Assembly (NCBI GenBank): GCA_023666705.1
Contig: JAMPBO010000001.1
Location: forward strand, 1-64,000
Length of the DNA stretch: 64,000 nt
From: Bacteroides sp.
Lineage (GTDB): Bacteria; Bacillota; Clostridia; Lachnospirales; Lachnospiraceae
Direction: 5' to 3'
Shown here piece after piece: positions 14,904-47,791 of this stretch. The first letter of the stretch is position 1; each line of letters begins with the position of its first letter. The notes under the pieces are model-generated. The model was not told the DNA's origin. It was given only the letters and a program-made list of their open reading frames with translations, and did no database searches. The position numbers and the translations under genes are program-made.

Positions 14904-14952
14904 ACGTTTTTGAATGAAAGTACAAAAAATTGCCAAAAAAAACATTTTTTAG

Positions 14953-15255: not shown

Positions 15256-15267
15256 GCTTATTATAAA

Positions 15268-15298
15268 GATGTTACCTTTGCGGGTGGCATCTTTTTTT
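15268..15298 (+). terminator. Rho-independent terminator of rpsU
   Basis: A 9-bp stem including two G-T pairs (GATGTTACC / GGTGGCATC), a 6-base loop and seven T residues. Confidence 0.85.
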
Positions 15299-15335
15299 AT
15301 TGCGGGGAATATATTTAAAACAAAATGAGTTTTTT

Positions 15336-15539: not shown

Positions 15540-15557
15540 ATTTTTGTGGTGATATAT

Positions 15558-16766
15558 ATGATAAAAAAAATACTAAATTTTTTAGCGGGATACGTTCTTG
15601 TCTCCATACATGGTGACGGGGTTGACCGTTTTATCAATATCTGTATGGCAAAAAAACTGCATATATGGAGCATCAAAAAGGATAAAAATAAAACCCTGCT
15701 TTATGTCAGCAGAACGGATTTTCAGAAATTCGGTTCCTTTGTGGAAAAGACAGGTGTAGAAATTCATGTTATAAAAAGCTTAGGAATCCCATTTCTGTAT
15801 GAAAAAAACAAAAAAAGAAAGTGCTTCGTCATCGGTTTTTTTCTGTTTTTATTTTTGGTATGGGAATTTACTACATTTGTATGGGATATCAATATAAGTG
15901 GCGAGGGCAGGTATTCTGCGGAGGAAATAGAAAAGAACATCAAGCAAAATTATGTGCAGCTTGGGACAAAGCTTACAGAGGTAAACTGTTCGGATTTAGA
16001 AAAAATGCTCAGGGATGAATATTCTGACATTGCATGGATTAGCTGCGAACTAAAGGGCACCCAGCTGAATATAAAGCTGACTGAGACGATTTTGCCTGAG
16101 GATATAGAAAAACAGAGCAAGCCCTGTAATATTGTTGCGTCAAAGGACTGCATTATATCGGATATGATTATAAAAAACGGTACGGGAATGTTTGAAGCAG
16201 GTGCGGAGGTCAAAAAGGGAGATATCATTATTACGGGTGCGGTAAACATTTACAATGAATATGATGAGCTGATTGAGACAAACTATGTTCCGGCATCAGG
16301 AATTGTGTACGGGCAGAGCAAAATGCCTTATGAGGATGCATTTGATTTGTCCCATTACGAAAAAAACTATACGGGGAAAAAGAAGCACTATTACGGAATT
16401 ATTTATGGTGACAATTTATTTGAACCGTTTCAGTATGATATGAGCTACAATAACTGTGACATCATAACAAGCTATGACGGAGTACGTATATTTGACACCT
16501 TTTACCTGCCGCTTACCTGCAAGAAAACCACGGTTTCCGAGTATGAGCCGGAGCTTGCAGCGTATACGGAACAAGAGGCGGTTGAAAAGGCAAAAAATAA
16601 GCTGAATGTATATATGGCAGAGCTTAAGAAAAAAGGGGTGGAAATACTGCAAAATAATGTTAAAATATACGTTAAGGACGGCAAATGTATTGCCTCAGGA
16701 TATCTTGTGGTAAAGGAGATTGTGGGGATTCCATTAGAGCTGTCTGTATTTGAACAAGGAGATTAA
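15558..16766 (+). CDS. yqfD: Sporulation protein YqfD
   Basis: 402 residues from ATG 15558 (GGTGAT just upstream; GTG 15546 is an alternative). Begins with NFLAGYVLVSIHGDGVDRF, as in the family. One membrane segment lies at about 91-110, then an external region (DINISGEGRYSAEEIE...) of POTRA/FtsQ-like appearance. Needed for sporulation in Bacillus and usually made in the mother cell. It sits 18 bases after yqfC and its end nearly touches phoH, so the group is one operon. Confidence 0.9.
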   Translation: MIKKILNFLAGYVLVSIHGDGVDRFINICMAKKLHIWSIKKDKNKTLLYVSRTDFQKFGSFVEKTGVEIHVIKSLGIPFLYEKNKKRKCFVIGFFLFLFLVWEFTTFVWDINISGEGRYSAEEIEKNIKQNYVQLGTKLTEVNCSDLEKMLRDEYSDIAWISCELKGTQLNIKLTETILPEDIEKQSKPCNIVASKDCIISDMIIKNGTGMFEAGAEVKKGDIIITGAVNIYNEYDELIETNYVPASGIVYGQSKMPYEDAFDLSHYEKNYTGKKKHYYGIIYGDNLFEPFQYDMSYNNCDIITSYDGVRIFDTFYLPLTCKKTTVSEYEPELAAYTEQEAVEKAKNKLNVYMAELKKKGVEILQNNVKIYVKDGKCIASGYLVVKEIVGIPLELSVFEQGD

Positions 16767-16773
16767 ATTACGT

Positions 16774-17751
16774 ATGAGTTCCTATTCTGAAAATATTACC
16801 ATACCGGGTGAGCATATCCAAAATGTGTTTGGACAGTATGATAAAAACATCAAAATAATCGAAAAGGAATATAACTTAGCGGTTGTACTTCGGGATGACA
16901 CCTTAAAGCTTGTGGGCGGAGAGGTTAATGTAAAAAGAGCGGTATCTGTTTTGGAGGAAATGATTAAGTTAGCCCAAAATGGTAATGCTATTACAGAGCA
17001 AACGATTAAATATGCAATTTCCATGTCAAAAACAGGAAATACACAGGTGGTAAGTGAGCTTGATATGGACGTAATCTGCCATACCGTAAGCGGTAAACCC
17101 GTGAAACCAAAGACACTTGGACAAAAGAAGTACTGTCAGGCGATTGAGAAGAACATGATTGTTTTTGGTGTGGGACCGGCAGGAACGGGAAAAACCTATC
17201 TTGCAATGGCAAAGGCAATTACTGCATTTAAAAACAATGAAGTGGGAAGAATTATTCTTACAAGACCTGCCATAGAAGCTGGGGAGAAGCTGGGATTTTT
17301 GCCGGGTGACCTGCAAAGCAAGGTTGACCCCTACTTGAGACCGCTCTATGATGCACTTTATGAAATTATGGGTGCAGAATCCTTTCTCCGGAATATGGAA
17401 AAGGGATTGATTGAAGTAGCACCGCTTGCTTATATGAGAGGCAGAACATTAGATAACGCATATATTGTTTTGGACGAGGCTCAAAATACAACGCCTGCCC
17501 AAATGAAAATGTTTCTTACCAGAATCGGTTTTGGCAGCAAAGCAATTATCACAGGTGATTTGTCCCAAAAGGATTTGCCGAGGGATACAAAATCGGGGCT
17601 TGAAATTGCCTTAAAGGTAATACGGTCAATCGAGGAAATATCGGTTATTCATTTTACAAGTGATGATGTAGTGAGACATCCTCTTGTACAAAAGATTGTG
17701 GATGCATATGAGCAATATGATGCAAGACAGTCGAGGGCAAAAAATAAGTGA
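16774..17751 (+). CDS. phoH: PhoH family ATPase
   Basis: 325 residues from ATG 16774 (AAGGAG at 16756-16761; TTG 16750 would overlap yqfD). N-terminal KH-like segment (about 1-85), then a P-loop domain with Walker A GPAGTGKT (about 135-142) and Walker B YIVLDEAQN (about 230-238), and SDDVVRHPLVQKIV near the end. PhoH-like proteins are cytoplasmic nucleotidases linked to RNA metabolism. Adjacent to ybeY, a rRNA maturation factor, as in most Firmicutes. Confidence 0.95.
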   Translation: MSSYSENITIPGEHIQNVFGQYDKNIKIIEKEYNLAVVLRDDTLKLVGGEVNVKRAVSVLEEMIKLAQNGNAITEQTIKYAISMSKTGNTQVVSELDMDVICHTVSGKPVKPKTLGQKKYCQAIEKNMIVFGVGPAGTGKTYLAMAKAITAFKNNEVGRIILTRPAIEAGEKLGFLPGDLQSKVDPYLRPLYDALYEIMGAESFLRNMEKGLIEVAPLAYMRGRTLDNAYIVLDEAQNTTPAQMKMFLTRIGFGSKAIITGDLSQKDLPRDTKSGLEIALKVIRSIEEISVIHFTSDDVVRHPLVQKIVDAYEQYDARQSRAKNK

Positions 17752-31318: not shown

Positions 31319-32779
31319 ATGAAAATAAAAAACGAAAGGATTAAGTATTGTTATACTGGTAAAATTATGCAGGTAGCTTATGATACATTTTTGCAATCTA
31401 AAGTTTTTGCTACACAAAATTGTTTGGATGAACCCTATAGATATGTGTGTACTTATTGCGGTGAAGAAGTATTTATTGCTGCAAAGGACAGCAATAGCAT
31501 GGTAGCTCATTTTAGACATCGTAGTGGTAATAATGATGTTGATTGCGACAAGTATCTTGGCAAATTTGGATCGGTAAGTGTAAAATCTGAAAGTCAAAAG
31601 AGCGATAGGGAAAAGGTGGAATTCTATTTCAATAATACTACGAAGTGTTTTACTATAGGGATTCGCTTTAGTGAAAATGAAATATTAGAATATGAAGGGA
31701 AAAATGCTGTCCTTGAGATAAGCATTCGCAGAGATGCCAAGCCGTTCTTTAGTCAAAAAATAAATAGTGCAAATTTTCCGACGGATGATGCAAAATTGGT
31801 TGTGCTTGAGACATTTTCCCCAGTTTATTTTATATCAAATTCATTTAGTCATAATAAAAAACCATATATGATATTTCGTGAAAAAGAACCTTCTTTTTTT
31901 AAAATCAAAGGAAAAGAGCAGGAATTCAACGCAAAATTAGTTAGAAGCGATGCATTATATACTGGTGTCCGATATTTCGTTGCACTTGCGGGTAGCAATA
32001 GAGTTCAATTAAAACTAAGAAAGTTGTCAGGAATATATATTGAGCAGGAATTTGATTTTATGTTTATTGAAAAGCATATATGGGCTTCTGTAATTATGAT
32101 TAAAAATAAAACAACTGAAATTGACGATGCTCTTGCACAGTGGAACTATACACTTGATACTTCCGAAGCTATTATGTTATTATGGCCGCCTTCTTATGAA
32201 ATTGATGACATTAATTTTATATGTGCAAATGAAGCATTTTTATCAAGTAGTTTTCAACTACAACCTTGCAGAAATATTAATACAGATTTTGATAGTATTC
32301 AAGCAATTGATTCGAATATTACAAAAGTCACAGTTGACAAGCACATCAAGATTTCAAGAAAGGGAGCTGAAATAGAGATAAATGCTCGAAACTCTAATTT
32401 GCTTTTAAAACAAAATAATGTTGGGGAGCAATTTGTAGAAAAATTTACTGTTCCTAAAGAGAATAGATATTATCTGTTTTCTGATAGTGGCGTACGAGAA
32501 TTGACATATGGTGAAAATGTTGTATTAACTGGAAATTCTTATATATGTGAATACTCAAATGGATGTCTGATACGAATTATAAAGACAGTTGAAGATTCTG
32601 AACTAAAGGGAGAAGAACTGTTTATTGACATAATTAAACATTATAAAGTTTTTGAACCATATAAAGGTATTTGTGCCGATGGGAAACCTGATTTCATAGT
32701 GAATTACATAAATAGTTGTAAAAAAACAGGAATAATTAATTCTTTAGTCAAAAAATATATTGAGGAGAGCAAATTATGA
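31319..32779 (+). CDS. CoiA-like zinc-finger protein, first gene of the helicase operon
   Basis: 486 residues. Near the N-terminus Cys44-x2-Cys47, His64-x2-His67 (HFRH) and Cys76 form a zinc-finger like that of CoiA-type competence/nuclease proteins (C..C ... HF.H). The rest is mostly predicted beta-strand with no family I recognise. I see no clear PD-(D/E)XK nuclease core, which CoiA proteins usually carry. The start has only a weak ribosome site (GAG). Its stop overlaps the next ATG (ATGA at 32776), so the two are translationally coupled. Probable DNA- or protein-binding component of a defence-type system. Confidence 0.6.
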   Translation: MKIKNERIKYCYTGKIMQVAYDTFLQSKVFATQNCLDEPYRYVCTYCGEEVFIAAKDSNSMVAHFRHRSGNNDVDCDKYLGKFGSVSVKSESQKSDREKVEFYFNNTTKCFTIGIRFSENEILEYEGKNAVLEISIRRDAKPFFSQKINSANFPTDDAKLVVLETFSPVYFISNSFSHNKKPYMIFREKEPSFFKIKGKEQEFNAKLVRSDALYTGVRYFVALAGSNRVQLKLRKLSGIYIEQEFDFMFIEKHIWASVIMIKNKTTEIDDALAQWNYTLDTSEAIMLLWPPSYEIDDINFICANEAFLSSSFQLQPCRNINTDFDSIQAIDSNITKVTVDKHIKISRKGAEIEINARNSNLLLKQNNVGEQFVEKFTVPKENRYYLFSDSGVRELTYGENVVLTGNSYICEYSNGCLIRIIKTVEDSELKGEELFIDIIKHYKVFEPYKGICADGKPDFIVNYINSCKKTGIINSLVKKYIEESKL

Positions 32780-34335
32780 AATATTTAGATCTTTTATCAT
32801 CGGAAGAAATACAATATATTTGCACCTCAATACCACATTGTGATATCATAAAATATTTTAAAAAGAATCCGAAGGAATTTACTAAAATTCGTCCGGGATT
32901 TCGCCCTGCCACCGTAACCCCAAAGGATGCTACAAAACTTTTGACAAGTAATATAAGTCGTAATTTTGTGTCTTCATTTGTTGAAAAGATTATAGAAAGA
33001 TGGCTATTGCAAATACAGGATGCATATGAAAGATATCTTGATGAAGAAAAAAGTGAAACGGCGGCTATTGTTCATACATTATCTCAGTCTTATTTTTCAG
33101 ATAATGTTGTGGCATATTTTAAATTGACTGATAAGGATTATTCAGATGAACAGATTTCTTTGATTTCTGATATGGTGTATGATTACAAAATCACCAAACA
33201 ACAGATAGAGGATTTAAATGAGAGCATTCAAAAACTTAAAACAACTATTCAGAATATGGAATCAGAGACAAAAAAGAAAGATTTGGAAACAAAAAAAATT
33301 CAAAAGAAACTTCAACAAGCTTTAAAGGAATTAGAACTTTTTCAGGGAATTTCATTAGATTTAGAAAGGTGCAAAGATAAAGTAATAACTTTAGAAGTTC
33401 AAAAGAAACAACAAAAAAAACGGATAGATGAGCTTTTGTTGCAAAAAAATGAAATTATTAAAGAAAAAGAAGCATTAGAGAGCGACATAGTTTTACGTAT
33501 CGAAAACGAAAGAAAGAGAAAATTAAATTCAGGTGTTCGAGAGTTTTCTTTATTGAGACCAAATGATATGAAAGAATTTCAAGAAAATCTATCTTATATT
33601 TTTGAAGACTTGGGAATCGGAGGTTCTGTACCTGGTATTGCATTGTTGAATAAATATCTTGCTAATGTATTGTTTTGTGGTATTCCCATAATAATAAGCG
33701 AACAATCAGGCTTGACGCTTGCCATGTGTGTTGCAAACGCTTTAATTGGGACACAAGAAATATCTTTATTAAGGTATACTCCAGATGTAACTGAAGAAGA
33801 TATTTTAAATTTTCTGTCTGAGTCTAAACGTGTTATTCTGTTGGATAACTTTATCGGTAATTATAACGAAACATTATTACTTCCGATTGTAAGAATGTAT
33901 GGAGATAAGATTATTTTTATGACAATACCATACGATCGTACGTTGAACTATATTTCTTCAGAGTTTTTAAAATATTGTAGTTACATAAACGTAAGTCATT
34001 TTAACCAGTTTACTGCCCAAGTTAAAATAAATGAGGATCCCCTTACAGTAACTGAAGAAATATATTCAATGGAAATTTCTAATAAACGAAGTCGTCATCT
34101 AAGAGTATTAAACGAAATTCTTGTGGAATTGTCTCTTGAATATTTGTCAACAAGTGTAGAACTGCATGGAATTTCAAATGATGATGATATTTCCGCTGAA
34201 CTAATATATAATATACTTCCTTATTGTACTTATGTTTGTAACAAACAACCTATGCGTTTGTCGGAAAAATTACAGAAGTATATGGGTAGATGTTCCTATA
34301 ATAAGTTGATTGGAGAATGGTTTACGAATGAATGA
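32776..34335 (+). CDS. Coiled-coil protein with degenerate P-loop-like domain
   Basis: 519 residues. A helical N-terminal region (1-135), a long coiled coil (about 138-250, Lys/Glu/Leu heptads) and a C-terminal alpha/beta domain. In the latter, IIISEQSGLTLA (about 305-316) occupies the place of a Walker A but lacks the Gly-Lys-Ser/Thr, while RVILLDNF (352-359) resembles a Walker B. This looks like a decayed AAA/STAND-type ATPase, perhaps a sensor or scaffold. Overlaps both neighbours (4 bases before, 8 after). No family recognised. Confidence 0.6.
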   Translation: MKYLDLLSSEEIQYICTSIPHCDIIKYFKKNPKEFTKIRPGFRPATVTPKDATKLLTSNISRNFVSSFVEKIIERWLLQIQDAYERYLDEEKSETAAIVHTLSQSYFSDNVVAYFKLTDKDYSDEQISLISDMVYDYKITKQQIEDLNESIQKLKTTIQNMESETKKKDLETKKIQKKLQQALKELELFQGISLDLERCKDKVITLEVQKKQQKKRIDELLLQKNEIIKEKEALESDIVLRIENERKRKLNSGVREFSLLRPNDMKEFQENLSYIFEDLGIGGSVPGIALLNKYLANVLFCGIPIIISEQSGLTLAMCVANALIGTQEISLLRYTPDVTEEDILNFLSESKRVILLDNFIGNYNETLLLPIVRMYGDKIIFMTIPYDRTLNYISSEFLKYCSYINVSHFNQFTAQVKINEDPLTVTEEIYSMEISNKRSRHLRVLNEILVELSLEYLSTSVELHGISNDDDISAELIYNILPYCTYVCNKQPMRLSEKLQKYMGRCSYNKLIGEWFTNE

Positions 34336-35320
34336 AATGATAAAATCCATGTCTATTGATATGAAAATTTTGCCATATACAGCGGAGAGTGAAGATTCTT
34401 TTATATATCGAGTTTTATTTTCTGCTTTGGGACAATGGTGTTTGTATATTCCACTCGGATCACAAAATGGTAGTCATGGAACAACAAAACATAACCAAAC
34501 ACATATATTAAACAATTTAATAAGCAAGTATAACGAGTTGTTTCCTAATACTGAAAAATCTCTCTGTTCTGATGAAGTTCGGTTATCTGTATTGATTAGA
34601 CATATATATCAAGAAGTTGGATATCTGTTTACAGACAATGAAAATCACAATCATTTATGTGATGTACAACGTGTTGTTAACACAGGAACCTCAAAGTTAT
34701 GTTTGAATTTATTGAATAAAAGTGAAATCAATGGACTGGGAGTATTTGACTTAGAAGTTGCTCCTTCGATTACATGGCAAGAACTTCTAATAAGAGATTC
34801 ACTTACGCCAAAACAGTATATAAATTCAAAATATGATATAGTTATGTTTGAGGATAGAGATTTGAATTATGATGATATGCAGTTTTTTAATCCGCTAGCC
34901 CATGCTTCTCCATCTCAGTCTTGGAATAATAAGATTTGCACAGAATTTACCATAGGACGTAAAAGTCTCACAGGACCATTTTATTTAATTCAGTCGTGTG
35001 ATGGGAATATTCTATATAGTTTGGAAGAGCAAAGTGCAACAGATTATAAACTAACAGCATTTGAGTATAGAAGGTTATATTTTGCACTAAAAAGTTTTTA
35101 CAATAATCCTGTAAAGATGCGAATTAAAAAAATAGATAATACATATTCCAAGCTTGTTTTTCAAGGTCATCTTCCAAATAGAGAATATTATTTACTGTTG
35201 CTTATTTCTTGGCCGGATCAGTGTGCTTTTAATAAGACAGAGTATATAATTAAAAATAGTTTTTTGCCATTTGTTTCTGAGGTAATATCAAATCTTGGAA
35301 TCAAAATTATAGGAGGTTAA
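34328..35320 (+). CDS. Unrecognised protein of the helicase operon
   Basis: 330 residues from ATG 34328, 11 bases after GGAGA and overlapping the preceding gene by 8 bases. No signal peptide or membrane segment. Notable patterns are a His-rich segment (NHNHLCDVQ, about 109-117), a central acidic FEDRDLNYDD and a C-terminal beta-rich part. I recognise no domain. Its fixed position just before the helicase (stop 35320, helicase ATG 35324) argues for a physical or functional partner. Confidence 0.6.
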   Translation: MNEMIKSMSIDMKILPYTAESEDSFIYRVLFSALGQWCLYIPLGSQNGSHGTTKHNQTHILNNLISKYNELFPNTEKSLCSDEVRLSVLIRHIYQEVGYLFTDNENHNHLCDVQRVVNTGTSKLCLNLLNKSEINGLGVFDLEVAPSITWQELLIRDSLTPKQYINSKYDIVMFEDRDLNYDDMQFFNPLAHASPSQSWNNKICTEFTIGRKSLTGPFYLIQSCDGNILYSLEEQSATDYKLTAFEYRRLYFALKSFYNNPVKMRIKKIDNTYSKLVFQGHLPNREYYLLLLISWPDQCAFNKTEYIIKNSFLPFVSEVISNLGIKIIGG

Positions 35321-35323
35321 ATT

Positions 35324-38300
35324 ATGGCTAACAATGGAGTACAACAATATTATGATGAGATTAGAAATCGTCTAAGTAATTATATAAAATCAGATTATCT
35401 TGCCAATAGTGAAACTTTATTACTATACGCTGAGGATCTCCTTGGTAAAACATGTTCTGATGCTACTAATATTGCAAAAGAACCATATATTGAAACGGCT
35501 GCGTCATATAAAAAATTGAAGAGTGGGATTAAGAACTCTACAGAGGAAGAAATACCCACTCATATAAAGGAGTTTTTGATAAAGCTAACAGAAGCGAAAC
35601 TTGGTGTATTTGAGGATCCATTTGAGCATCAGGTTAAGGCATTGCAATCCTTCATTTCAGGAAAAGATCTTTTTGTATCAACTGGAACAGGTTCAGGTAA
35701 AACAGAGTGCTTTATTTGGCCGATTATTTCTAAATGTATTGATGAAGCTAAAAAAAGACCAGAATCATTTAAATATAATGCTGTCCGTACCTTGATTATT
35801 TATCCGATGAATGCCCTTGTTTCCGACCAATTGGCACGTTTTAGAAAAATAATGGGTTCACCCAAATATATTGAATATTTTACAAAAGATGCAAAAGCGA
35901 ATAGAATTCCTCATTTTGGTATGTATACTGGCAGAACTCCTTATGCTGGTGATGCAAAAATAGCAAGCAACCAAGAACTGGCAAAAACTTTTAGAGAGAA
36001 TTATTTGGCGGATGAAAATGCTACCGAAGAAATACAAAGACAACAAAAATTAAATATTGATGGATTACATCGTATTAATAAGTACCCAGCTAGATATGGC
36101 GAAAATGGTATGCTAAAATTCGTGGAAAATTTGGAAAAGAACATTCATAGCCCTGCTCCACTTGATGCGGAATTTATTACTCGGTTTGAGATGCAATCTT
36201 GTCCTCCGGATATCCTTATAACTAACTATTCAATGTTAGAGTACATGTTAATGCGTCAAAGAGAGTCACACATTTGGGACAGCACAAAACAGTGGCTAAA
36301 CAAAGCTGAGGAAAACAAGTTGCTTATTGTTTTAGATGAAGCACATATGTATAGGGGCTCTTCTGGCGGCGAAATAGCACTCCTGCTAGAACGCCTTTTT
36401 ATACGATTGGGTATTGGTCTTGAAAAAGTTCAATTTATTTTAACCACTGCCAGTATGCCTCTTGAAGAGCAGAAGGCAATCAATGATTTCTATATAGGAC
36501 TTACAGGAAAAGCTCCGTCTGACTGTGAGTTTTTATTTGGCGAAAGAGAGGAAATCCCTGAAGAATCTGAGATTTCTCTTAATGTTGATGCTTTGGCAGG
36601 AGTTGGTCCTGAACAGGTTCAGGATGATGAGATTGCTAACAAAATCAAAAAGTTCGCCAAATTAGTGTATTCAGAAAGCTTACCAAAAGATATTACGGGC
36701 AAAGAAGCACAAGAGTGGCTTTATAATAATTTGCCTCGATATGCGGCGTTTGTTGAATTAAATAAGCTTTGCAGAGAAGGTGCCAAATCGTATAGTCTGA
36801 TAAAAACTAAGATTTTTGGCAAGCATCAAAAAGCAGAATTAGCGTTGGACTCTTTGCTGTCCATAGTTTCTTTGGCATGTAAAGATGGCAATATTCTTTT
36901 TCCTGTTAGACTGCACATGTTCTTGCGTGGTTTACAAGGAATATATGCTTGTTCGAATCCCAATTGTTCCTGTGCCAGATACTCAGAAGAAGAAAAATTA
37001 AAGCTTGGCAAAGTAATTTCTCTTCACAAAGAAAACTGTGAATGTGGTGGACGAATATATGAATTGGTAAACCATGTAAAGTGTGGTGCATTGTATTTAA
37101 AAGTGTATGTCCAACGTAATGAAGGACAATCCTATTGGTATGTATTCTCACAACGTGGATTAAATGGTGATGTGAATTCTCTAAAAGAGATGCTTTTGTA
37201 TATCATGCCTGAGAACTATGATAGAAAACCTAAAGATAAAATTGGCTCTCTTGATCCCTTTACGGGTAAATTATACTTATCCGAGAAAGATGATCCTAAC
37301 TTATTAAAAATTATATATACAGAGAAATTTGATTCAAAAGAACAAACATATACTTTTGCAACTTGTCCTAAATGCAGAAAGCCAATGAGATTGAAAAAAC
37401 CGAGCGATTTCTCTACAAAAGGCAATATTCCTTTTTATAATTTAACAAAAGCACAGTTTGAATTGCAACCATCAAAATCTGATATGATAAATCGAGGGAA
37501 AAAGGTCTTATTATTCTCAGATTCGCGTCAAAACGCAGCGAAACTTGCACGAGATTTGTCAAAATCTTCAGATGCGGATGCATTTCGTCAAGCTGTTATG
37601 CTTTCTACTCTATTGCTTAAAGTAGATGAAAAAGAACATTCATTAGCAGAATTATATCCGGCATTTTTGGATGTCTGTATCCAAAATCAATTGACATTTT
37701 TTAGTGGATCAAGCAGAGATAAATTTCAAGACAACAAGAGAACCTTTGAAGATACAAAAAAGCGTTATGCACGAAAGGGTAAACCTATGGATTATTCTGT
37801 CTTGGCACAAGAGTATCAGAATCTTCCCAATGAGTATTACGAACAACTGCTAACTTTTTTTACTGAAAGCCCTCGATCCTTTAAGGATATAGGAATTGGT
37901 TTCCTTGCTCCTGTTTCAGAGGCGTTAGAAGATTGCGTTTTTGATTTAGAGAATCAAGGAATAGAAATTAATTCCGACGATTTGTATAAGGTGTTAGTAT
38001 TGTTATTCTGGGATGTTATGGATGATTGTGCGGCACTTGGTGAATCCATACCTGACGATATACGAAGAGATTTACCTGGTCGTAGTAAGGCTCAGGATTT
38101 TGGTCTTGCCTTTGATTTTTTGTCTGCTTTAGACTCGAAATTAATTAAACTACTTCCACAATATCTTGGTATTCAAGAATCAAATAAGGAAGCTGTAATT
38201 ACAAAGATAAGAGATGTATTTTTTGGTTTTGGATCAAATAATAATAGGTATTACATTAAACTTTCAGAAGTGAAAATCGAATTGACTGATGAAAATTTCA

Positions 38301-40537
38301 CATGGTATAGATGTACAAAGTGTGGCAAGTTGTCTCCGTTCAAGTTGGGTGATTATTGCGGGGCATGTTTTGAAAAACATAAGCTTATAAAAATAAGTGA
38401 CACCGATTTGGAACGTTTTGATTTTTGGCGTATACCAGTTATAAATGCCCTTGAGAAAATTGATGAGATTCATACTATTGACACAGAGGAACACACTGCA
38501 CAACTATCTCATAAGGGTATTAAGAATGAGACTTGGAGTCGGACTGAAAAATATGAAATGCGTTTTCAAGATATTAATGCTGGAGAGCATGGCGAAAATT
38601 CTATCGATGTTCTTAGCTGTACAACCACTATGGAAGTTGGTATTGATATTGGTTCTCTGACAGCAGTTGGGATGAGAAACATTCCACCAATGCGTGAGAA
38701 TTATCAGCAACGAGCCGGACGAGCTGGACGAAAAAATGCAGGCATATCAACAATTGTTACATATGCTTCTGGAGGCGTCCATGACAGCCACTACTTTGCA
38801 CATCCAGACGAAATGATATCAGGTCCCCCAAGAAAACCTTGGATAGATAGAGATAATCCAAAGATTTTGCAACGGCATAAAAATATGTTGATTATTAATG
38901 GTTTCATGTCATTACCAAAGATGAAGGAACGTTTTGATAGCATTATGGACATTGGTGTTATAACCTTCTGTGAAGAATTTGGGGCAGCGTTCATAGAATA
39001 CGCAAAGGACTTGCCTTTTGACACGGAAAGAACAACTGAAAGTTTTGAAAAAATCAAATTAACGGTTCTTGCCGAAGGAAAACGAGCACAATATACTGCA
39101 AATGATAAAGAAACAGATGCTTTTGATGTGTTTTATAGCGAAGGTTTTATTCCGTCATATTCCTTCCCTAAAAATGTAGTTCGTTTTTTTGTTGAAGAGG
39201 AATCAAAAAAAGGAAAACGTGCCCCTCGAGAAATAAAATATGCACCTGAACGTGACATTGCTGTTGCTTTGAGTGAGTATGCCCCTGGGCGATTTGTTAC
39301 TATTGATAAAAGAATTTATCGGAGTGGTGGTATTTACGCAAATCCCCGACCAAAAGGGTTTGAAGCTAATCAGGCAGAATACTATTTCGATAGCCCAGAT
39401 TATTACAGTGATGTTTTTGTGTGTACGGAATGCAACTGGTTTGGAACCAAAGAAGAGAATGCTCAGGAAGGAGTTTGTCCTTATTGTAGTGCATCTGTTG
39501 ATCGTCGGAAAATGTTAAAACCATGGGGATTTGCTCCTGTCAAAGGCGATGAAGTACGACATGAAGATGAAAGTGAAGAATTCACCTATACGGAAGCTCC
39601 GTACTATTCATATGTACCAAGTACATCTGACACCATGCAAAGTTATGGTAAAAGCAATATAAAGTATACGGAGCTTTCTGATAAAAAAGTTCTTACAGTG
39701 AATATGGGTAAGCACAAAAATGGATTTAATATATGCAAAAAATGCGGTGGTGCTGATGTGGCGGAAGAAAATAATGCCAATAACTATAAATTCTCACAAC
39801 CGTATCATGATTATCTATTGTGTAGACACAACGGAACTGTCATGCAAAACATTTTTCTTGGATACGAGTTCATGACAGATATGTTTATGTTGGATTTGGA
39901 GTATGATTCAAATAGATTGGTGGGAATGGGGGACTCTAAGGAAAAAGCAATTTTAAGAGCGGCTGTAACAACATTGCACGAAGCGATGAAAAAAGCTATT
40001 TCATTGGAGCTTGATATCGATTATAATGAAATTAGCGGGGGATGGAGACCTCGTATTGAAAGAGATGGAAAGTCTCATATTGAAATGTTCTTCTATGATA
40101 ATTTAACAAGCGGTGCTGGATATTCGTCTTTAATTGGGACAATTTTAGATAAGGTTCTAAATAGAACTCGGGATATTTTGAGCAATTGTGAATGTTCCAG
40201 ATCGTGTAAAAATTGTCTTGATAATTATTATAATCAGAGGAATCATTATCTCTTTGATAGAAATCTCGGATTGCAGTTGTTGGATTATGCAGAGATGAAC
40301 AAATATCCATCTAAATATGAAAAGAAGGAAAAAGAAGTTATGCTTTATCCTTTGTTGAAACTGTTAGAGGAAGATAGTAGCAGAGAGCTTTCTGAAACTT
40401 TAAGTTTTGAAGTCATCCCTGCTCTCATAAAAAAGGATATTACAAATCCACAAAAAATTTATCTTAATCCGTATGATTTAACTGATTGGTTGCCTAATAC
40501 ATTTATGGATGTTAAAGATTTACTTAGTATGATATAA
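35324..40537 (+). CDS. Giant SF2 DEAH helicase with zinc clusters and DUF1998-type C-terminus
   Basis: 1737 residues. Helicase motifs: [10 protein letters not shown] (about 119-128), [12 protein letters not shown] (motif Ia), [10 protein letters not shown] (about 335-344), TTASMP (motif III), [11 protein letters not shown] (motif IV region), [11 protein letters not shown] (motif V) and [10 protein letters not shown] (about 1127-1136). Cysteine pairs suggest zinc sites near 542-575, 681, 997-1015, 1366-1390 and 1470. The C-terminal [18 protein letters not shown] (about 1623-1640) is the hallmark of DUF1998. This COG1205-like arrangement is that of DruE of Druantia and, split in two, DrmA/DrmB of DISARM. 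Predicted ATP-driven DNA translocase, core of a defence-type operon. Confidence 0.88.
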
Positions 40538-40590
40538 TAAATGAATATCGTCATCTATATCTGGCGGAAATAATCACTTGGAGGTATAAT

Positions 40591-41502
40591 ATGGCTCAAA
40601 GGAATAAACAAGACACAAAATTAAAGAATTATTCTCCACTTAGATATCCTGGTGGTAAAAGTAAACTTGCATCTTTTGTTTCTCTGGTAATCAAAAAAAC
40701 TGATATAAAAAGTCCTATTTATATTGAGCCTTTTGCAGGTGGAGCAGGGATAGCTCTTGAGTTACTTTTTAATGGAACAGTCGATGAAATAGTCATAAAT
40801 GATTACGACAAAGCGATATATTCTATGTGGCGAGCGATATTAACGAATACTCGAAAGTTTATTGAGCTTATAGAAAATACTCCATTAAATGATGCTGAGT
40901 GGAGAAAGCAAAAAAATATTTATATCACTCAAAACAAAAAGTATTCGCTTGAACTTGGTTTTGCAGCATTTTATTTGAATCGTACAAATCGTTCAGGAAT
41001 ATTGAGTGCTGGTCCCATTGGTGGTCATAATCAGACAGGAAATTATCTTATTGATGCAAGATTTAATAAAGATGATTTAATTGCACGAATCAAAAAAATT
41101 TCAAAACATAAACAAAGAATTCATTTATACAATCAAGATGCACAGAAATTTTTAAATGGCTATGCACGTAGATATATAAAAGATGCTTTTATTTATTTTG
41201 ATCCACCGTACTATCATAAAGGTAAACAATTATATAAAAATTATTTTGGACATAAAGATCATCTGAAGATAAGAGATATAATTGTAAAGCTAAATTGTCC
41301 ATGGATGGTAAGCTATGATAATGTTGTGCAGATTCGGGAAATGTACAATATGTATCAAGGATATAATTTTGATTTGGTATATAGTGTAGCAAACACTGGT
41401 TTGAATTCAGAAATTATGTTTTTAAGCAATCAAGCATTGGTACCATCAACTAATGAATTAAAAGCAGCAAATATAAAAATCAATTTTAGAGAATGTACTT
41501 GA
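40591..41502 (+). CDS. D12-class DNA N6-adenine methyltransferase
   Basis: 303 residues. RYPGGKSKL (about 18-26) and EPFAGGAG (46-53) bind AdoMet, and DPPY (204-207) is the catalytic motif; the order is that of the alpha (Dam/DpnM) group. N6-methylates adenine in DNA; target sequence unknown. It follows the helicase after 53 bases with its own TTGGAGG site. No partner restriction endonuclease is recognisable nearby, so it probably marks self DNA for the helicase system. Confidence 0.9.
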   Translation: MAQRNKQDTKLKNYSPLRYPGGKSKLASFVSLVIKKTDIKSPIYIEPFAGGAGIALELLFNGTVDEIVINDYDKAIYSMWRAILTNTRKFIELIENTPLNDAEWRKQKNIYITQNKKYSLELGFAAFYLNRTNRSGILSAGPIGGHNQTGNYLIDARFNKDDLIARIKKISKHKQRIHLYNQDAQKFLNGYARRYIKDAFIYFDPPYYHKGKQLYKNYFGHKDHLKIRDIIVKLNCPWMVSYDNVVQIREMYNMYQGYNFDLVYSVANTGLNSEIMFLSNQALVPSTNELKAANIKINFRECT

Positions 41503-41811: not shown

Positions 41812-42063
41812 ATGCAGGCAACGATTCAAAAATGGGGGAATTCACAGGGTATAAGAATACCTAAAGCATTTCTTGAAGCATTGGGAATGATGGAAAATGA
41901 TCTTGTGGAACTTAGTAGAGTTGATGATAACATTGTAATTACAAAAGTTAAAAAGGAAAAAGAACTTACACTTACATTAGAAGATATATTCAAAGATTAC
42001 GATGGAGAATATTCAGCAGAGGAATTTGACTGGGGAGCTCCTGTTGGAAAGGAAGTGTGGTAA
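41812..42063 (+). CDS. mazE: MazE-like AbrB-fold antitoxin
   Basis: 83 residues from ATG 41812 with AAGGAG (41798-41803); the longer frame starts inside the promoter. MQATIQKWGNSQGIRIPKAFLE is the SpoVT/AbrB swapped-hairpin DNA-binding domain of MazE. The acidic C-terminus (DIFKDYDGEYSAEEFDWG) is the toxin-neutralising tail. The gene abuts mazF with no gap. Confidence 0.92.
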   Translation: MQATIQKWGNSQGIRIPKAFLEALGMMENDLVELSRVDDNIVITKVKKEKELTLTLEDIFKDYDGEYSAEEFDWGAPVGKEVW

Positions 42064-42504: not shown

Positions 42505-43557
42505 TTAAGACTTTTCCCGGAGCTGCACCTTATTTCTTGCAGTTCTCCGTCTGTTTTCGTCAATATCGGCATAATGCCGCCTTGTTGTATTGACATCGGT
42601 ATGTCCCAAAACATCAGCAACAAGGTAAATGTCGCCTGTTTCCTGATAAAGTGACGTGCCGTAGGTACTGCGGAGCTTATGCGGCGTAATATGCTTTAAA
42701 GGCACAGAGCAGGCAGAATATTTTTTAACCATGTTTTCAACTGTCCGAACACCGATTCGTTTACGCTGGGAAGACAAAAACAATGCATTTTCATGTCCCT
42801 TTTCAGGCGTTATTTTCTTACGTTCCTCCATATAAACAGCTAAAGGTTCAGCAGCCTCGTCGCTGAAATATACAATGGCTTCCTTGCCACCTTTTCTTGT
42901 AACCTTGATACACATTTTATCATAATCCACATCTGATAAATCTAAACCGACACATTCCGATATACGGATACCTGTGCTTAACATAAGCGTTAAAAGGGCT
43001 AAATCGCGGTTTTTTGACTTAGAATGAAATTGTAACTGTCTATCAGTCAAATGATTGCCATATTCAACGGTATCAAGAAATTCTGCAACCTCGTTTGGTT
43101 CCATGCGGATAATCTGTTTTTCGCGTATCTTAGGCATTTCCACCTTAACAAGCGGATTTTGGCTTACAAGGTCATTCTTGTACAAATATGCGTAAAAAAT
43201 TCTTAAACTCGTTAATTTACGCTTTAATGCAGCCTTGCCGTTTGTGTATATTTTGCCGTTTTTAGAATATTTCTGCAGATAGTCAAGATAATCCTCAATA
43301 AACATGGAATCTACATCATTTAAAACATCGAGAGAAATGTCCTTTAAACTGTCGAACGATTGTTTATCATAAGACTCATATATGTATTCAAAGAATGTTT
43401 TTAAATCACGGACATAACCAAGCTGTGTACGTGAAGCTTTTGATTGCTGGATACCTCGGACAAATCGTTTTACATATGGAGGAAGTTCCTCACAAATTGC
43501 ACGAATATAATCTAAGTTTTGCATTTCGTTTTGTTCATGATAAGTGTAGTCAGCCAT
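42505..43557 (-). CDS. Tyrosine recombinase (XerC/XerD-like)
   Basis: 350 residues, AGGAGG just upstream. N-terminal SAM-like core-binding domain (about 25-130) and catalytic domain with Arg198 (STGIRISE), Lys222 (TRKGGKE), His293 and Arg296 (PHKLRST), His319 (LGHTDVNTT) and nucleophile Tyr329 (RRHYA). All residues are present, so it should be active. It may be a chromosomal Xer-type or island integrase; the N-terminal extension (about 25 residues) is longer than in XerC/D. No clear attachment-site pair was found. Confidence 0.9.
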   Translation of the reverse strand: MADYTYHEQNEMQNLDYIRAICEELPPYVKRFVRGIQQSKASRTQLGYVRDLKTFFEYIYESYDKQSFDSLKDISLDVLNDVDSMFIEDYLDYLQKYSKNGKIYTNGKAALKRKLTSLRIFYAYLYKNDLVSQNPLVKVEMPKIREKQIIRMEPNEVAEFLDTVEYGNHLTDRQLQFHSKSKNRDLALLTLMLSTGIRISECVGLDLSDVDYDKMCIKVTRKGGKEAIVYFSDEAAEPLAVYMEERKKITPEKGHENALFLSSQRKRIGVRTVENMVKKYSACSVPLKHITPHKLRSTYGTSLYQETGDIYLVADVLGHTDVNTTRRHYADIDENRRRTARNKVQLREKS

Positions 43558-43674: not shown

Positions 43675-43948
43675 AGTTTTATTTTCGTAAAACCTGAGTT
43701 TTGCGAATAAATTTATCAAAACACACCACTACTATTTGTTAGCTGAATTATAAACTTACATACATTAACATTAAAGGAATTCACGACTTTATTATTTTAT
43801 GATACAGAAATACAATGTCAGAATTTAAATAATAAAGCTTGTCTGCCGATGCATTGGCTATACCGTGCAAACAGCAAACAAGCTCAAAAATTGTGTAAAA
43901 CCGCAGGCATGATAAAACAACAGCCATGCGATAACGATAATTATCATA
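43675..43948. other. Gene-free stretch between recombinase and surface-protein genes
   Basis: About 270 bases with no plausible gene. Contains the inverted repeat at 43684-43707, a hairpin AGCTTGT (43836-43842) / ACAAGCT (43878-43884) and the terminator candidate below. Confidence 0.5.
43902..43930 (-). terminator. Possible terminator of the surface-protein gene
   Basis: On the - strand CGCA(T)GGC pairs with GCCTGCG (7 bp, one bulge) around a 14-base loop, followed by GTTTTACACAATTTTT. It lies about 20 bases after the surface-protein stop. Confidence 0.45.
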
Positions 43949-46900
43949 TCAATTTTTTCTCTTGATTTTCAAGGACACACCCAATATGCTTAAGAGAAAC
44001 AAAATTCCAAGTCCAATAACACCGACTGGCTCTGCATTATCTCCTGTTTTTGGACTGGCTGGAGTTTTTGTAGTCGGTGCCTCTGTGATTGATGTTTCAA
44101 TAGTTGATGCTTCTGTGGTCAATGTCTCTGTGGTTGATGTTTCCGTAGTCGGTGTTTCCGTGGTCGTTGCCTCAGTAGTCGTATTTTCCGTAATTGGTGT
44201 TTCCGTGGTTGTTGTCTCGGTAGTTGTATCTTCCGTAGTCGGTTCCTCAGTAGTTGCCTCTTCTGTGGTTGTTGTCTCGGTAGTTGTATCTTCCGTAGTC
44301 GGTTCCTCAGTAGTTGCCTCTTCTGTGGTTGTTGTCTCGGTAGTTGTATCTTCCGTAGTCGGTTCCTCAGTAGTTGTCTCTTCTGTGGTTGTTTCTTCTG
44401 TGGTCGTTTCTTGATTTTCCTCATAAACAGGTGTCAAAACAATAAAGGCATCTTCTGTGCTGAGCGTATTACCTGCAACAAAGCTGTTGTCGTTATTATC
44501 TTTCCAGCCTGTAAAGGTAAAGCCGTCTACTGGTTCACCTGCTTTTATTGTATAGATAAATTTCTTATTATCCGAGCTTATCTGATAAACGGTTATTCTT
44601 TCCGTACTCAGGATTGTACCGTCTTTTTTCAGATAATCCAGCCGTCCTTGTTTTTCGTATACACAATAAACATCTAAGCCGTCAAGAGAAACCGTTACAT
44701 CATCTCCTGCCTTCAATAAATCATCAGCAGAAGAAACAGCGGCATCCCCGTCAATGACATATCCGGCAAAGGTATTTTCTCCACCGGCATTATATGCAGC
44801 CAACCCGCACGCTATCTCGTCCTGGTTGTTGTAAAAGGAAACGGCGGTTCTGTAATCCGAGGCGGTATCATATGTATGATAATTGATATAAGCCGTCTTT
44901 TTATATATGGCATATAAGGTAATATTCTCCCTTTCTGCCGTAAGTGTAGTAAGTCCTTCTGTTGCGTTTTGGTCTGTATTCCAACCCACAAACTCATATC
45001 CTGTCTTAGAGGCGGTATAGGTTAAATCGATAGCATTTCCGTTAAGATAGCTGAATCGTATCAGTTTTCCACCACTGAAAGTATCACCTCCGTTTGTTGT
45101 GACATCGTAGGTCACATTACAACCTGCTGCGAAAATGGCATATGTAGTGTTGCCATCCTTCTCTGTTGATATCACAAAGCCTTCTTTTTTTGCAAACATT
45201 TGAGAGGTAATATCAGTGGACAGTGTTGCAATCCTTCTACCAATTGTATATCCTGATTCGACTGTGTCAAAAACTGCCGTGTCGTGCAAATTATTTACGC
45301 TGAATGTATACATTCCATTGGCTGTTCCCAAATAATACACACTGTCATCACTATATAAATCATTCGCACTAATAACAACCCTATTCTTAGAATATACATT
45401 ACCAACCCCACCACCGGTAAGCCTTCCCTCTGAGCCGCTAATGATAAAATTTGCATAAGCACTGGTGGAGTCATCGTATACATTCCATTCCAGATTATCG
45501 TAAACCTTAGATTCAGAAGCAAGCACTACATTGCCTGCACTCTCCGCCATATAAAGCCCTGTTTTACAATCATGTACATTCACTGTTGCACTCGTTAAGC
45601 TTCCTGTGATTTTAATTCCATAATTGTCACAATTATATATTTCCAGCCGATTCTTCCATTCCATTGGACTTGATGTGATAAAATAAGCATTAAGACCATC
45701 ATTGTTACAGTTACGTATCGTATCCGTGTGTGTATCCGTAAAGTTAGGAATATTTGGATCTATATTTTTATATAAGCCGTACACTTCCATTCCGTTATTA
45801 CAGTTTTCAATCAGATTATTGCCATAAGAATAATTATTATTGTTCGATAGTTTCAAGCCGGTTTCACAATCATGTACATGGGTATCTGCAATATTCACAA
45901 CTCTTACAGAGTCAATCCCTGTCTTACAATTAAAAATCTCAGATTTCCCATCATTTACATTTCTGTCCGTATATTGCGTCAAATCAGCGTAAACTCCCCC
46001 ATTAGGAGAATAATAAGGGCGTTCTAAGCTGTATACATGTAATGTGCCTGCACCTGATTCCACAGAAATCCCCGATTGTGTTGTATCAGAATCTCCCTCC
46101 ACAACACAGCCATAAAAATAGGATGTGCCACCTCTCATAAGTACAGATGTTTTTCCACCGACAAAGCTTGTATCATAGACAGTTGTCTGATAAGCACCTA
46201 TGAGGTTTTGGTCCTTGTTTTGGTATCTGCAACCGATAACCGTCGTATTAGATGAAGCATGCAAATCACTTCCAACATTAAAATCAGTGATATCACAATC
46301 TATCAGATAACATATATAATTTGTTGTAACTCCGACGGAATATACGGAATCTCTTGCCTGCAATGTTGTGTCAACTATGGCAACGGCATCGCTTGTTATT
46401 TCAATTCCTGATTTGCAATCTGATATCCCGCAGCCTGATATTACAGCCGTGCAAGAGCTTAAGCAAATACCTGTATCGAAGCCTGTGATATGGCAGGCTT
46501 TAATTTGAGGCATCTGGCTAAAGTCATAATCAACCGATGCGAAATCTTTTGAAGTTAATTTTCCGTCGCCCTTATATCCGACTGTGTCGGAAGCACCCTC
46601 CCGTGCCTCCATGGTTAGGTTTGAAATAATTGCATTTTCATATCCTGACAGATATTTGATGTAAAGTCCGGTAATACAATCTGTAATTGTAGTGTCGCTG
46701 ATTGTGACTGTATCCATATCAGAAATAGAACTGACATTACATCCGGAAAGATTAATTCCCGTATCAAAGCCTGTGATTGTACAGCCTGTAATTTCTCCTA
46801 CTGCACTGCCACCATGATCAATCGCAGTTTTTCCCGGCTGTGAGGTGCTAAGCTCACAATTGGATATTGATTCAATAATATAAGGGGTGGCTTTGGAATC

Positions 46901-47791
46901 TGCTGTCGTCTGTCCAAGAACGGTTCCTGTACAGTTTTTTGCCGTAATATTGGAAAAGCTTGCCCTGCATGAAGCGTTTGTAGATTTAAATAAGAGTCCG
47001 CAGTTATCCATATTGCAATCAGAGATGCTGACAGGGCACGGTGCACCCTTCGACCATATACACGGCTCTGGGCAATTCATAAATTCACATCCGGTGATAT
47101 ATGTTCTTTCTGTTACAGCATTTGTATACAATTCAACTGTCGCTGCGGAAAACTGACTGTCTGTACAATCAAATTTGATGTGTCCCTGCACATATAGTGC
47201 TCCATTTTTGATATGTGTATTCTCGATTGCTACGGTATTTGCCACAAGGGAAAATGTATGTCCGTCTGTATCTATGCTGTGACCATTACCATAAAGAACA
47301 AAATCCTTTTTGACATCCTCAATCTGCTGACAAACTAAAGTAGCATTGGAAGACAATGTGATATCATCATTTAAAATAATGACTATTGGATTTTTCTTTT
47401 CGAAGTATATTGCTGTTGTTGCTCCTGAAGTAGTCCACCCACTGCCATCACCTGCCGCATGGCTGAACAGGACATTCCAATCATCCTGAGAATTAATTTC
47501 AATGCAATATCCTCCCTCTGGCACTTCCAGAGGTGCCGCATTTAACAACGTATCTATTGCCGTGACAGACGCAATGTAGATATCCGTTATCTTTGTATCA
47601 GTTGTTGCATAGACAATCCCTGTCATGTCCGTATCTGGAGCATCCATATAAGTTGCATCCATGTAGGTAGCATCCGTATCTGTCGCTTTTTGCCCTGTGT
47701 TTTCGGCATAAGACATAGGACCTGGCATATTTAGCATCAACAGACATGTACACAGTATTGCACAACTAAGATTCCTCAGTTTTCTTCTCAT
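43949..47791 (-). CDS. LPxTG-type beta-helix surface protein with Thr-rich repeats
   Basis: 1280 residues. Signal peptide (about 1-31, cleavage after MSYA), then a long right-handed parallel beta-helix region (about 90-860) of repeated N/D-C-x-G/T-I rungs. It is followed by an InlB/Listeria-Bacteroides repeat (TGYEFVGWNTDQNA), a second MucBP-like segment, a Thr/Glu-rich stalk and a sortase signal SPKTGD followed by a membrane helix and KIKRKN. The sorting motif has Ser in place of Leu as written (SPKTG). Wall-anchored adhesin or glycan-binding protein. AGGAGGG precedes the start. No sortase gene is in the window. Confidence 0.88.
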   Translation of the reverse strand: MRRKLRNLSCAILCTCLLMLNMPGPMSYAENTGQKATDTDATYMDATYMDAPDTDMTGIVYATTDTKITDIYIASVTAIDTLLNAAPLEVPEGGYCIEINSQDDWNVLFSHAAGDGSGWTTSGATTAIYFEKKNPIVIILNDDITLSSNATLVCQQIEDVKKDFVLYGNGHSIDTDGHTFSLVANTVAIENTHIKNGALYVQGHIKFDCTDSQFSAATVELYTNAVTERTYITGCEFMNCPEPCIWSKGAPCPVSISDCNMDNCGLLFKSTNASCRASFSNITAKNCTGTVLGQTTADSKATPYIIESISNCELSTSQPGKTAIDHGGSAVGEITGCTITGFDTGINLSGCNVSSISDMDTVTISDTTITDCITGLYIKYLSGYENAIISNLTMEAREGASDTVGYKGDGKLTSKDFASVDYDFSQMPQIKACHITGFDTGICLSSCTAVISGCGISDCKSGIEITSDAVAIVDTTLQARDSVYSVGVTTNYICYLIDCDITDFNVGSDLHASSNTTVIGCRYQNKDQNLIGAYQTTVYDTSFVGGKTSVLMRGGTSYFYGCVVEGDSDTTQSGISVESGAGTLHVYSLERPYYSPNGGVYADLTQYTDRNVNDGKSEIFNCKTGIDSVRVVNIADTHVHDCETGLKLSNNNNYSYGNNLIENCNNGMEVYGLYKNIDPNIPNFTDTHTDTIRNCNNDGLNAYFITSSPMEWKNRLEIYNCDNYGIKITGSLTSATVNVHDCKTGLYMAESAGNVVLASESKVYDNLEWNVYDDSTSAYANFIISGSEGRLTGGGVGNVYSKNRVVISANDLYSDDSVYYLGTANGMYTFSVNNLHDTAVFDTVESGYTIGRRIATLSTDITSQMFAKKEGFVISTEKDGNTTYAIFAAGCNVTYDVTTNGGDTFSGGKLIRFSYLNGNAIDLTYTASKTGYEFVGWNTDQNATEGLTTLTAERENITLYAIYKKTAYINYHTYDTASDYRTAVSFYNNQDEIACGLAAYNAGGENTFAGYVIDGDAAVSSADDLLKAGDDVTVSLDGLDVYCVYEKQGRLDYLKKDGTILSTERITVYQISSDNKKFIYTIKAGEPVDGFTFTGWKDNNDNSFVAGNTLSTEDAFIVLTPVYEENQETTTEETTTEETTTEEPTTEDTTTETTTTEEATTEEPTTEDTTTETTTTEEATTEEPTTEDTTTETTTTETPITENTTTEATTTETPTTETSTTETLTTEASTIETSITEAPTTKTPASPKTGDNAEPVGVIGLGILFLLSILGVSLKIKRKN
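44208..44387 (-). repeat. 60-bp tandem repeats in the Thr-rich stalk
   Basis: Three copies with an exact 60-base period (44208-44267, 44268-44327, 44328-44387); the first two are identical and the third differs by few bases. Each encodes 20 residues rich in TTE/TTT. Flanking DNA is a decayed version of the same pattern. Such arrays readily change copy number. Confidence 0.9.

What the first reader, a model, noticed from the sequence alone, without database searches (positions are those of the whole stretch)
31319..41502. Candidate undescribed defence-type operon built on a giant DUF1998 helicase
Five same-strand genes, four of them overlapping or within 4 bases, encode a CoiA-like zinc-finger protein (486 aa), a coiled-coil protein with a decayed P-loop (519 aa), an unrecognised protein (330 aa), a 1737-aa DEAH helicase with zinc clusters and DUF1998-like end, and a D12 adenine methyltransferase. 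The helicase form is that of DruE (Druantia) or fused DrmA-DrmB (DISARM), but the three upstream proteins match no Druantia or DISARM component I know, and DISARM lacks this methyltransferase type. The block is more A/T-rich than its neighbours and is followed by mazEF and a recombinase, a typical defence-island setting.
Basis: partly seen in the sequence, partly recalled or inferred. Interest (0 to 1): 0.88.

Follow-up and report, generated by a model that had tools for sequence, protein, structure and literature searches.

The report
DruA-less Druantia operon with swappable methyltransferase
This is a known kind of bacterial anti-virus gene cluster (Druantia) in a Clostridia genome that lacks one usual gene and instead carries a DNA-methylating enzyme, of a family also found in other defence systems, that has been exchanged during evolution and may mark the cell's own DNA as self.

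Summary
The five genes are there, co-directional and tightly packed. PADLOC models fit ORF1 (DruB), ORF3 (DruD) and the 1737-aa helicase (DruE) over nearly full length. ORF2 escapes the DruC model, but profile comparison links it to DruC-position proteins and its model resembles AAA+ ATPases without a P-loop. So 'undescribed' is mostly wrong. Two things differ from canonical DruABCDE. DruA was found in 0 of 15 Clostridia genomes and in 2 of 2 controls. A D12-class methyltransferase follows druE in 11 of 12 assessable loci of this clade. DruB, C and D co-diverge with DruE (r 0.97-0.98; methyltransferase 0.86). The clade's methyltransferases reject one origin (AU p 8.8e-6; 6.7e-4 after dropping three long-branch rows) and have kin beside PD-Lambda-5_A and ATPase genes. 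I read it as DruBCDE guarded by an exchangeable modification enzyme; that function is inferred. It lies about 2 kb from a dif-like site, where a sister species has CRISPR-Cas. New variant of a known kind.

The parts
31319..32779 (+). druB homologue (ORF 486 aa; likely start ATG 31367, 470 aa); CoiA-N-like zinc ribbon near the N-terminus
   Evidence: PADLOC PDLC00003 DruB1 450.5 bits, profile 1-477/477, protein 17-486; weak DUF7830 and CoiA_N matches below Pfam cut-offs; alignment A4
32776..34335 (+). druC-position gene (519 aa): helical N-terminus, long coiled coil, C-terminal AAA+-like domain without a GK[ST] P-loop
34328..35320 (+). druD homologue (330 aa)
   Evidence: PADLOC PDLC00008 DruD1 386 bits, profile 1-334/338; alignment A1
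35324..40537 (+). druE: 1737-aa SF2 DEAH helicase of the YprA/MrfA kind with CxxC clusters and MZB (DUF1998) domain
   Evidence: PADLOC PDLC00013 DruE1 1956.6 bits over 3-1774/1776; DEAD, Helicase_C and MZB over Pfam cut-offs; GTGSGKT, DEAH and QQRAGRAGR present in 12 of 12 complete clade-1 sequences
40591..41502 (+). D12-class DNA methyltransferase (303 aa, DPPY motif), PD-Lambda-5_B family; no restriction-enzyme family match among the eight window proteins scanned
   Evidence: PF02086 86.8 bits; PDLC04018 PD-Lambda-5_B 380.9 bits; directly follows druE in 11 of 12 assessable clade-1 loci, window included
41812..42063 (+). mazE-like antitoxin gene, neighbour, not counted as part of the cassette
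   Evidence: PF04014 52.1 bits
42064..42390 (+). mazF/pemK-like toxin gene, neighbour; a short stretch similar to it lies beside the Xer gene in a sister species
   Evidence: PF02452 74.3 bits; 54-bp match of 42252-42305 in L080
42505..43557 (-). Xer-type tyrosine recombinase, conserved chromosomal gene flanking the insert
   Evidence: XerS model 210 bits, below its cut-off 267; in 9 of 12 same-genus genomes at 61-92% and 8 of 8 of other families at 47-50%
43680..43712 (+). dif-like site beside the Xer gene
   Evidence: kept with at most 5 mismatches of 33 at the Xer gene in 9 of 9 same-genus loci looked at, L064-L072; only copy in the genome at up to 3 mismatches of its 24-bp core

Best explanation
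It is a DruA-less relative of Druantia type I: a conserved core DruB-DruC-DruD-DruE with a D12-class DNA methyltransferase as fifth component. Proposed working: the methyltransferase modifies a short DNA motif in the host chromosome. DruB (zinc ribbon), DruD and the pseudo-AAA+ coiled-coil DruC form a recognition and regulatory assembly on DruE, a large SF2 DNA helicase/translocase. Incoming DNA without the mark lets the assembly load or fire, and DruE then unwinds or blocks the replicating phage DNA; any cutting would be by an unrecognised or host nuclease. The methyltransferase can be exchanged for another of the same family, which would change which motif counts as self. Shown here: gene identities, co-divergence of B, C, D and E, linkage of the methyltransferase to this clade and its several origins, lack of a P-loop in the DruC-position protein, no nuclease family match in the operon's proteins above Pfam cut-offs except the helicase's ResIII domain hit, which is a helicase-type match. 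Inferred: antiphage activity, methylation of the host, self/non-self use of the mark, complex formation.
For: DruB/D/E near full-length model matches. Link of ORF2 to DruC-position proteins and its AAA+-like model. Order B-C-D-E in 13 of 13 clade-1 loci; methyltransferase directly downstream in 11 of 12 where the contig allows. One DruE clade at 100/100 support, 12 rows. B, C and D identities track DruE (r 0.984, 0.971, 0.979 over 21 pairs of seven loci) while the methyltransferase does less (0.858; window-L029: DruE 68%, methyltransferase 37%). One origin of the Druantia-linked methyltransferases is rejected (AU p 8.8e-6 for 10 of 17 rows; 6.7e-4 for 9 of 14 rows after three long-branch rows were left out). 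The same family is the B part of PD-Lambda-5 and lies beside PD-Lambda-5_A homologues or AAA-type ATPases in seven loci elsewhere. No type II restriction-enzyme family matched in the eight window proteins scanned. DISARM and ARMADA, built on related helicases, also carry a methyltransferase, and a mutation in ARMADA's catalytic motif abolished protection (PMC12458937 section 5 and passages).
Against: No experiment. The clade-1 locus L030 lacks the methyltransferase and none was found in its genome (genome 76% complete), so the core may work without it. L059 has a split druC and an interrupted methyltransferase while druE is open. Nine distant type I-like loci with at least 1.2 kb downstream of druE have no methyltransferase of this family there. 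The canonical type I gene set named in the papers I saw (DruABCDE) has no methyltransferase, so methylation-based self-recognition is not a general Druantia feature. Published type III work points to activation by a phage protein and to ssDNA-containing replication intermediates, not to methylation (PMC13316683 passages; PMC13192584 abstract start).
Confidence: 0.6

Rival explanations
1. A Druantia BCDE core that works as other Druantia do (sensing phage replication products or proteins); the methyltransferase is a passenger or a separate guard, for example against phage-borne or resident restriction systems, and has no part in the Druantia reaction.
For: L030 has no methyltransferase; nine distant type I-like loci lack it downstream, and at least 4 of the 11 distant loci sit next to ordinary restriction-modification genes (L031, L032, L036, L062; the others were not scanned for this), so neighbourliness with modification genes may be loose; the methyltransferase is a mobile family.
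Against: It stands directly after druE in 11 of 12 assessable clade-1 loci although its lineages differ; in the window no type II restriction-enzyme family matched beside it; loose passengers would not be expected to be replaced by the same enzyme family at the same place.
Confidence: 0.3
2. A genuinely undescribed defence family unrelated to Druantia in its three small proteins.
For: ORF2 matches no PADLOC, Pfam or NCBIfam model above noise and shows no similarity to the DruC of the P. putida control alone.
Against: ORF1 and ORF3 match DruB and DruD models over nearly their whole length; ORF2 joins DruC-position proteins with E 8.5e-12 outside its coiled coil, controls at E 0.16 or worse.
Confidence: 0.03
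3. A decaying remnant: a Druantia operon that lost druA and is no longer active, kept beside a methyltransferase.
For: DruA was not found; L059, a relative, has a split druC and an interrupted methyltransferase.
Against: All five frames in the window are open with helicase motifs intact; [quoted passage not shown]
Confidence: 0.07

Closest known systems
Druantia type I (DruABCDE)
   Same: DruB, DruD and DruE homologues and a DruC-position protein in the same order. Control locus L041 on a P. putida plasmid has annotated DruA, PADLOC DruB and DruC, then two further genes ending in the helicase
   Different: No DruA found; a D12-class methyltransferase added; DruC-position protein below detection by the PADLOC DruC model; DruE 1737 aa against 1841 aa in L041
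PD-Lambda-5
   Same: The methyltransferase belongs to its B family (380.9 bits). PMC9519451 (passages) describes PD-Lambda-5 as looking like a compacted RM+Abi system
   Different: Its A partner was not found among the eight window proteins scanned; Druantia genes stand in its place
DISARM and ARMADA
   Same: DUF1998/YprA-type helicase plus a methyltransferase (PMC12458937 section 5 and passages)
   Different: Theirs is a PglX-like enzyme with a BrxHII/RapA-like helicase; no separate gene of either kind among the eight window proteins scanned (DruE itself has partial BrxHI/BrxHII hits of at most 52.5 bits); DrmA models score 37.5 bits or less on DruE
Druantia types II and IV
   Same: DruE-type helicase; PMC12458937 (passages) says types I and II encode inactivated homologues of the McrB-like CnuB, the type II one with an extended coiled coil
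   Different: No DruF, DruG, DruM or DruL among the PADLOC hits shown for the eight window proteins (complete lists except for DruE, 25 of 37 shown)

Membership tests
Druantia (any type) | DruE: large DEAD/DEAH helicase with DUF1998/MZB domain | tested here: met
   PDLC00013 1956.6 bits over 3-1774/1776; MZB 54 bits over its cut-off 24.2
Druantia type I | DruB | tested here: met
   PDLC00003 450.5 bits, 1-477/477
Druantia type I | DruC | tested here: inconclusive
   PADLOC DruC1 E 0.66, coiled coil only; linked to DruC-position proteins of other Clostridia loci (C-terminal part E 8.5e-12) but not to the L041 DruC alone (E 0.35)
Druantia type I | DruD | tested here: met
   PDLC00008 386 bits, 1-334/338
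Druantia type I | DruA (PF14236) | tested here: not met
   no match in the window's genome (where no control rang) nor in any of 15 Clostridia genomes, this one included; 2 of 2 positive-control plasmids found. Hence filed as a DruA-less relative, not as canonical type I
DISARM | DrmA/DrmB helicase pair with DrmC (gene set recalled) | tested here: not met
   DrmA models at most 37.5 bits over short stretches of DruE; no DrmB or DrmC among the hits shown (25 of 37 families shown for DruE); NCBIfam DrmA 11.8 bits against cut-off 999
PD-Lambda-5 | B methyltransferase | tested here: met
   PDLC04018 380.9 bits
PD-Lambda-5 | A partner beside it | tested here: not met
   no PD-Lambda-5_A among the hits shown for the eight window proteins scanned (for DruE the best 25 of 37 shown)
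Any antiphage system | Protection against phage | not testable with these tools
   needs plaque assays

The most novel reading that the evidence does not exclude
A subtype of Druantia in which DruA has been dispensed with and self/non-self discrimination is done by an interchangeable methyltransferase module drawn from a family that also serves PD-Lambda-5-like and ATPase-based systems. The motif that counts as self would change each time the module is replaced. This would put a Druantia helicase system on the same footing as BREX, DISARM and ARMADA.
Probability: 0.45. Interest if true: 0.62.

Novelty: new variant of a known kind. Interest (0 to 1): 0.42.

Why it matters
I found no account, in the papers and passages I saw, of how Druantia type I tells phage from host; the two mechanism papers I saw concern type III. 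A natural variant that carries a methyltransferase, replaced more than once by kin of the same family, gives a direct handle: change or remove the methyltransferase and see whether self-recognition changes. It also shows one modification module shared among several architectures of defence-type loci.

Tried and rejected
Undescribed family: rejected, DruB and DruD models fit nearly full length. DISARM: rejected, only short DrmA similarity. Mobile-element integrase at the right end: rejected, the gene is a conserved Xer type. Flanking direct repeats of an integrated element: none that bracket the block among the repeats reported. tRNA genes and Rfam families in the window: none reported. Plasmid and phage collections: no DruD match at E 1e-5; DruE matches 168 plasmid records, all under 60% identity; no DruE match in viral contigs by the six peptide patterns used. 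Solved structures for ORF2 by sequence: E 0.006 at best, and the matched ranges lie mostly in the coiled coil. The profile test of ORF2 was uneven: the C-terminal part matched one four-sequence set (prob 97.5) and the mixed eight-sequence set (97.9), but only weakly L032/L036/L037 (36.5) and not L036, L041 or L044 alone (2.9, 0.2, 0.1); the N-terminal part matched L032/L036/L037 (98.1) and L036 (99.5), less the four-sequence set (63.4), and not the mixed set, L041 or L044 (8.6, 0.9, 0.4). The link to DruC rests on these and on gene position. The 'pdb_via' result is a second look at Foldseek's matches, not a search. A structure of DruB was ordered but had not finished, so DruB's fold is untested; ordinary PDB and viral fold searches were never accepted. 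In print: searches with Druantia, DruA, methyltransferase and related terms and passages of PMC12458937, PMC11090510, PMC8565338, PMC13192584, PMC13316683 and PMC7251935; nothing I saw describes this arrangement. Supplementary files could not be read and the Druantia discovery paper (PMC6387622) is not held, so it may be listed there. PADLOC models that fit almost end to end suggest that close relatives of B, D and E were in its training data.
Full report
Observation. The block is A/T-richer than its surroundings. Gene order recurs in other genomes, so the operon is real. ORF1 probably begins at ATG 31367, where relatives and the PADLOC match begin.

Relatives. One genome-contig scan returned 6 loci, 4 of them of this clade. 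DruD searches over 392 order, 397 family and 391 class genomes gave 12, 8 and 3 genomes with a match (the last at a stricter limit); a DruB search over 391 class genomes gave 4. The samples overlap. After removing repeats there are 13 loci of the window's clade: window, L018, L019, L020, L021, L028, L029, L030, L057, L058, L059, L060, L105. All 13 have B-C-D-E in order; in L105 druE is cut by the contig end, in L021 druB lacks its usual N-terminus, in L059 druC is split. The methyltransferase directly follows druE in 11 of 12 that can be judged; L030 lacks it, and none was found in that genome, which is only 76% complete. In L059 the methyltransferase frame is interrupted. A more distant group of 11 type I-like loci (L031-L039, L061, L062; several cut by contig ends) has no methyltransferase of this family after druE in the nine with at least 1.2 kb downstream; L036 has a more distant D12 enzyme there, with an NgoPII-family restriction gene. 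At least four of the 11 sit beside restriction-modification genes (Eco57I-like in L031, Eco47II in L032, NgoPII in L036, EcoO109I in L062); the other seven were not scanned for this, apart from one SIR2-like neighbour in L034.

DruA. PF14236 was absent from the window's genome (where no control rang) and from all 15 Clostridia genomes searched, while both plasmid controls with annotated DruA rang at E 1.2e-82 and 5.8e-82. Genomes first met later (those of L057-L062 and L105) were not searched for it. Type I is described as DruABCDE (PMC13316683 passage; PMC7251935 passages), so this is a DruA-less relative and not a canonical member.

The methyltransferase is the informative part. It matches PADLOC's PD-Lambda-5_B model at 380.9 bits. 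In 299 family genomes, 11 have such a gene at E 1e-40 or better: 5 are Druantia loci and 6 lie beside other partners. Of those six, three lie beside an AAA-type ATPase (L096, L097, L099), two beside such an ATPase and a PD-Lambda-5_A homologue (L098, L100), and one beside PD-Lambda-5_A alone (L101). L102, and in the genome of the distant locus L032, also has PD-Lambda-5_A (Pfam AAA_15/21 was tested on L096 and L097 only). PMC9519451 (passages) says PD-Lambda-5 appears to be a highly compacted RM+Abi system. DruE of the window's clade forms one group at 100/100 (12 rows; that tree's long DruA-linked branches lie outside the group). The methyltransferases of the same loci do not: holding 10 Druantia-linked rows of 17 together costs 63 log units (AU p 8.8e-6), holding 9 of them without L029 is also rejected (p 2.1e-4), and after dropping the long rows L029, L101 and L102 the test on 9 of 14 rows still rejects one origin (p 6.7e-4). 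The interrupted L059 gene was in none of these trees. One remaining row (L100) is long, and the direction of transfer is open. Identities tell the same story: B, C and D follow DruE closely (r 0.984, 0.971, 0.979 over 21 pairs of seven loci), the methyltransferase less (0.858); window against L029 is 68% for DruE but 37% for the methyltransferase, where window against L018 is 70% and 61%. So the core travels as a unit and the fifth gene has been replaced by kin.

Base modified. The nearest solved structure is 7m6b (E 2.8e-26 with the family profile, 3.9e-17 with the window protein), then DpnM 2dpm. PMC8616854 (passages) calls 7m6b M.CbeI, an N4-cytosine methyltransferase, although its PDB name says adenine-specific. 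The DPPY motif is present in 7 of 7 aligned family members. m6A or m4C cannot be decided here.

Place. GC skew changes sign near 42.5 kb, with two small exceptions to the right, and the longest ORFs are on the + strand to the left and the - strand to the right, as expected at a replication terminus. The Xer-type gene at 42505-43557 is conserved, and beside it lies a 33-bp element kept with at most 5 mismatches in 9 of 9 same-genus loci looked at, whose core is unique in the genome: probably dif. In the same-genus single-contig genome G1096 the Xer gene and the left-flank kinase-like gene are about 110 bp apart (L083), and in G1091 the same flanks hold a CRISPR-Cas cluster with Cas1, a Cas3-type helicase, Cas4, Cas6, a DevR-type protein and Csx8 (L080). 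The insert therefore lies between about 30591 and 42251, where similarity to G1091 stops and resumes. This is a terminus-linked defence hotspot, described from three genomes only.

Mechanism. I propose that the methyltransferase marks the host and DruBCDE acts on unmarked DNA through the DruE motor; apart from the helicase's ResIII match, which overlaps its DEAD domain, no nuclease family matched over Pfam cut-offs in the operon's proteins. The linkage, the repeated exchange within one enzyme family and the lack of a matched type II restriction enzyme support this, and methyltransferases belong to the related DISARM and ARMADA systems, where a catalytic-motif mutation in ARMADA's abolished protection (PMC12458937). 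L030 and published type III mechanisms speak against methylation as a general requirement. All function is inferred from sequence.

Noticed in passing
window 43680-43712, with Xer gene 42505-43557: A probable dif site next to a single Xer-type recombinase (XerS model 210 bits, below cut-off) at the GC-skew switch; the core is unique in the genome and kept in the genus. The pairing of XerS with difSL in cocci is recalled, not looked up.
   Followed up: partly
L080 (G1091), 9513-17628, with repeat-like short ORFs at about 3000-9400: A CRISPR-Cas cluster (Cas1, Cas3-type helicase, Cas4, Cas6, DevR, Csx8) occupies the same chromosomal site in a sister species, with a 54-bp stretch similar to mazF near the Xer gene. 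The repeat arrays were judged by eye.
   Followed up: partly
L096, L097, L098, L099, L100, L101, L102: The same methyltransferase family lies beside AAA-type ATPases, PD-Lambda-5_A homologues, or both; the three-gene form (L098, L100) may be a defence architecture worth its own look.
   Followed up: partly
L030, L037, L038 (genome G249): One 8.8-Mb, 76%-complete assembly holds three separate type I-like Druantia loci; its size suggests it may be mixed.
   Followed up: no
L031, L032, L036, L062: Four distant type I-like loci sit beside restriction-modification genes of four different families.
   Followed up: no
window 43949-47791: A 1280-aa protein on the - strand with a T/E-rich stretch near its C-terminus (15-nt repeat at 44061-44405) followed by what looks by eye like a cell-wall anchor; a relative in L081 is 55% identical over 1169 residues.
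   Followed up: no
L018 1551-2159 and L020 4314-4919: A similar 200-aa ORF precedes druB in two of the close relatives but was not seen in the window; not identified.
   Followed up: no
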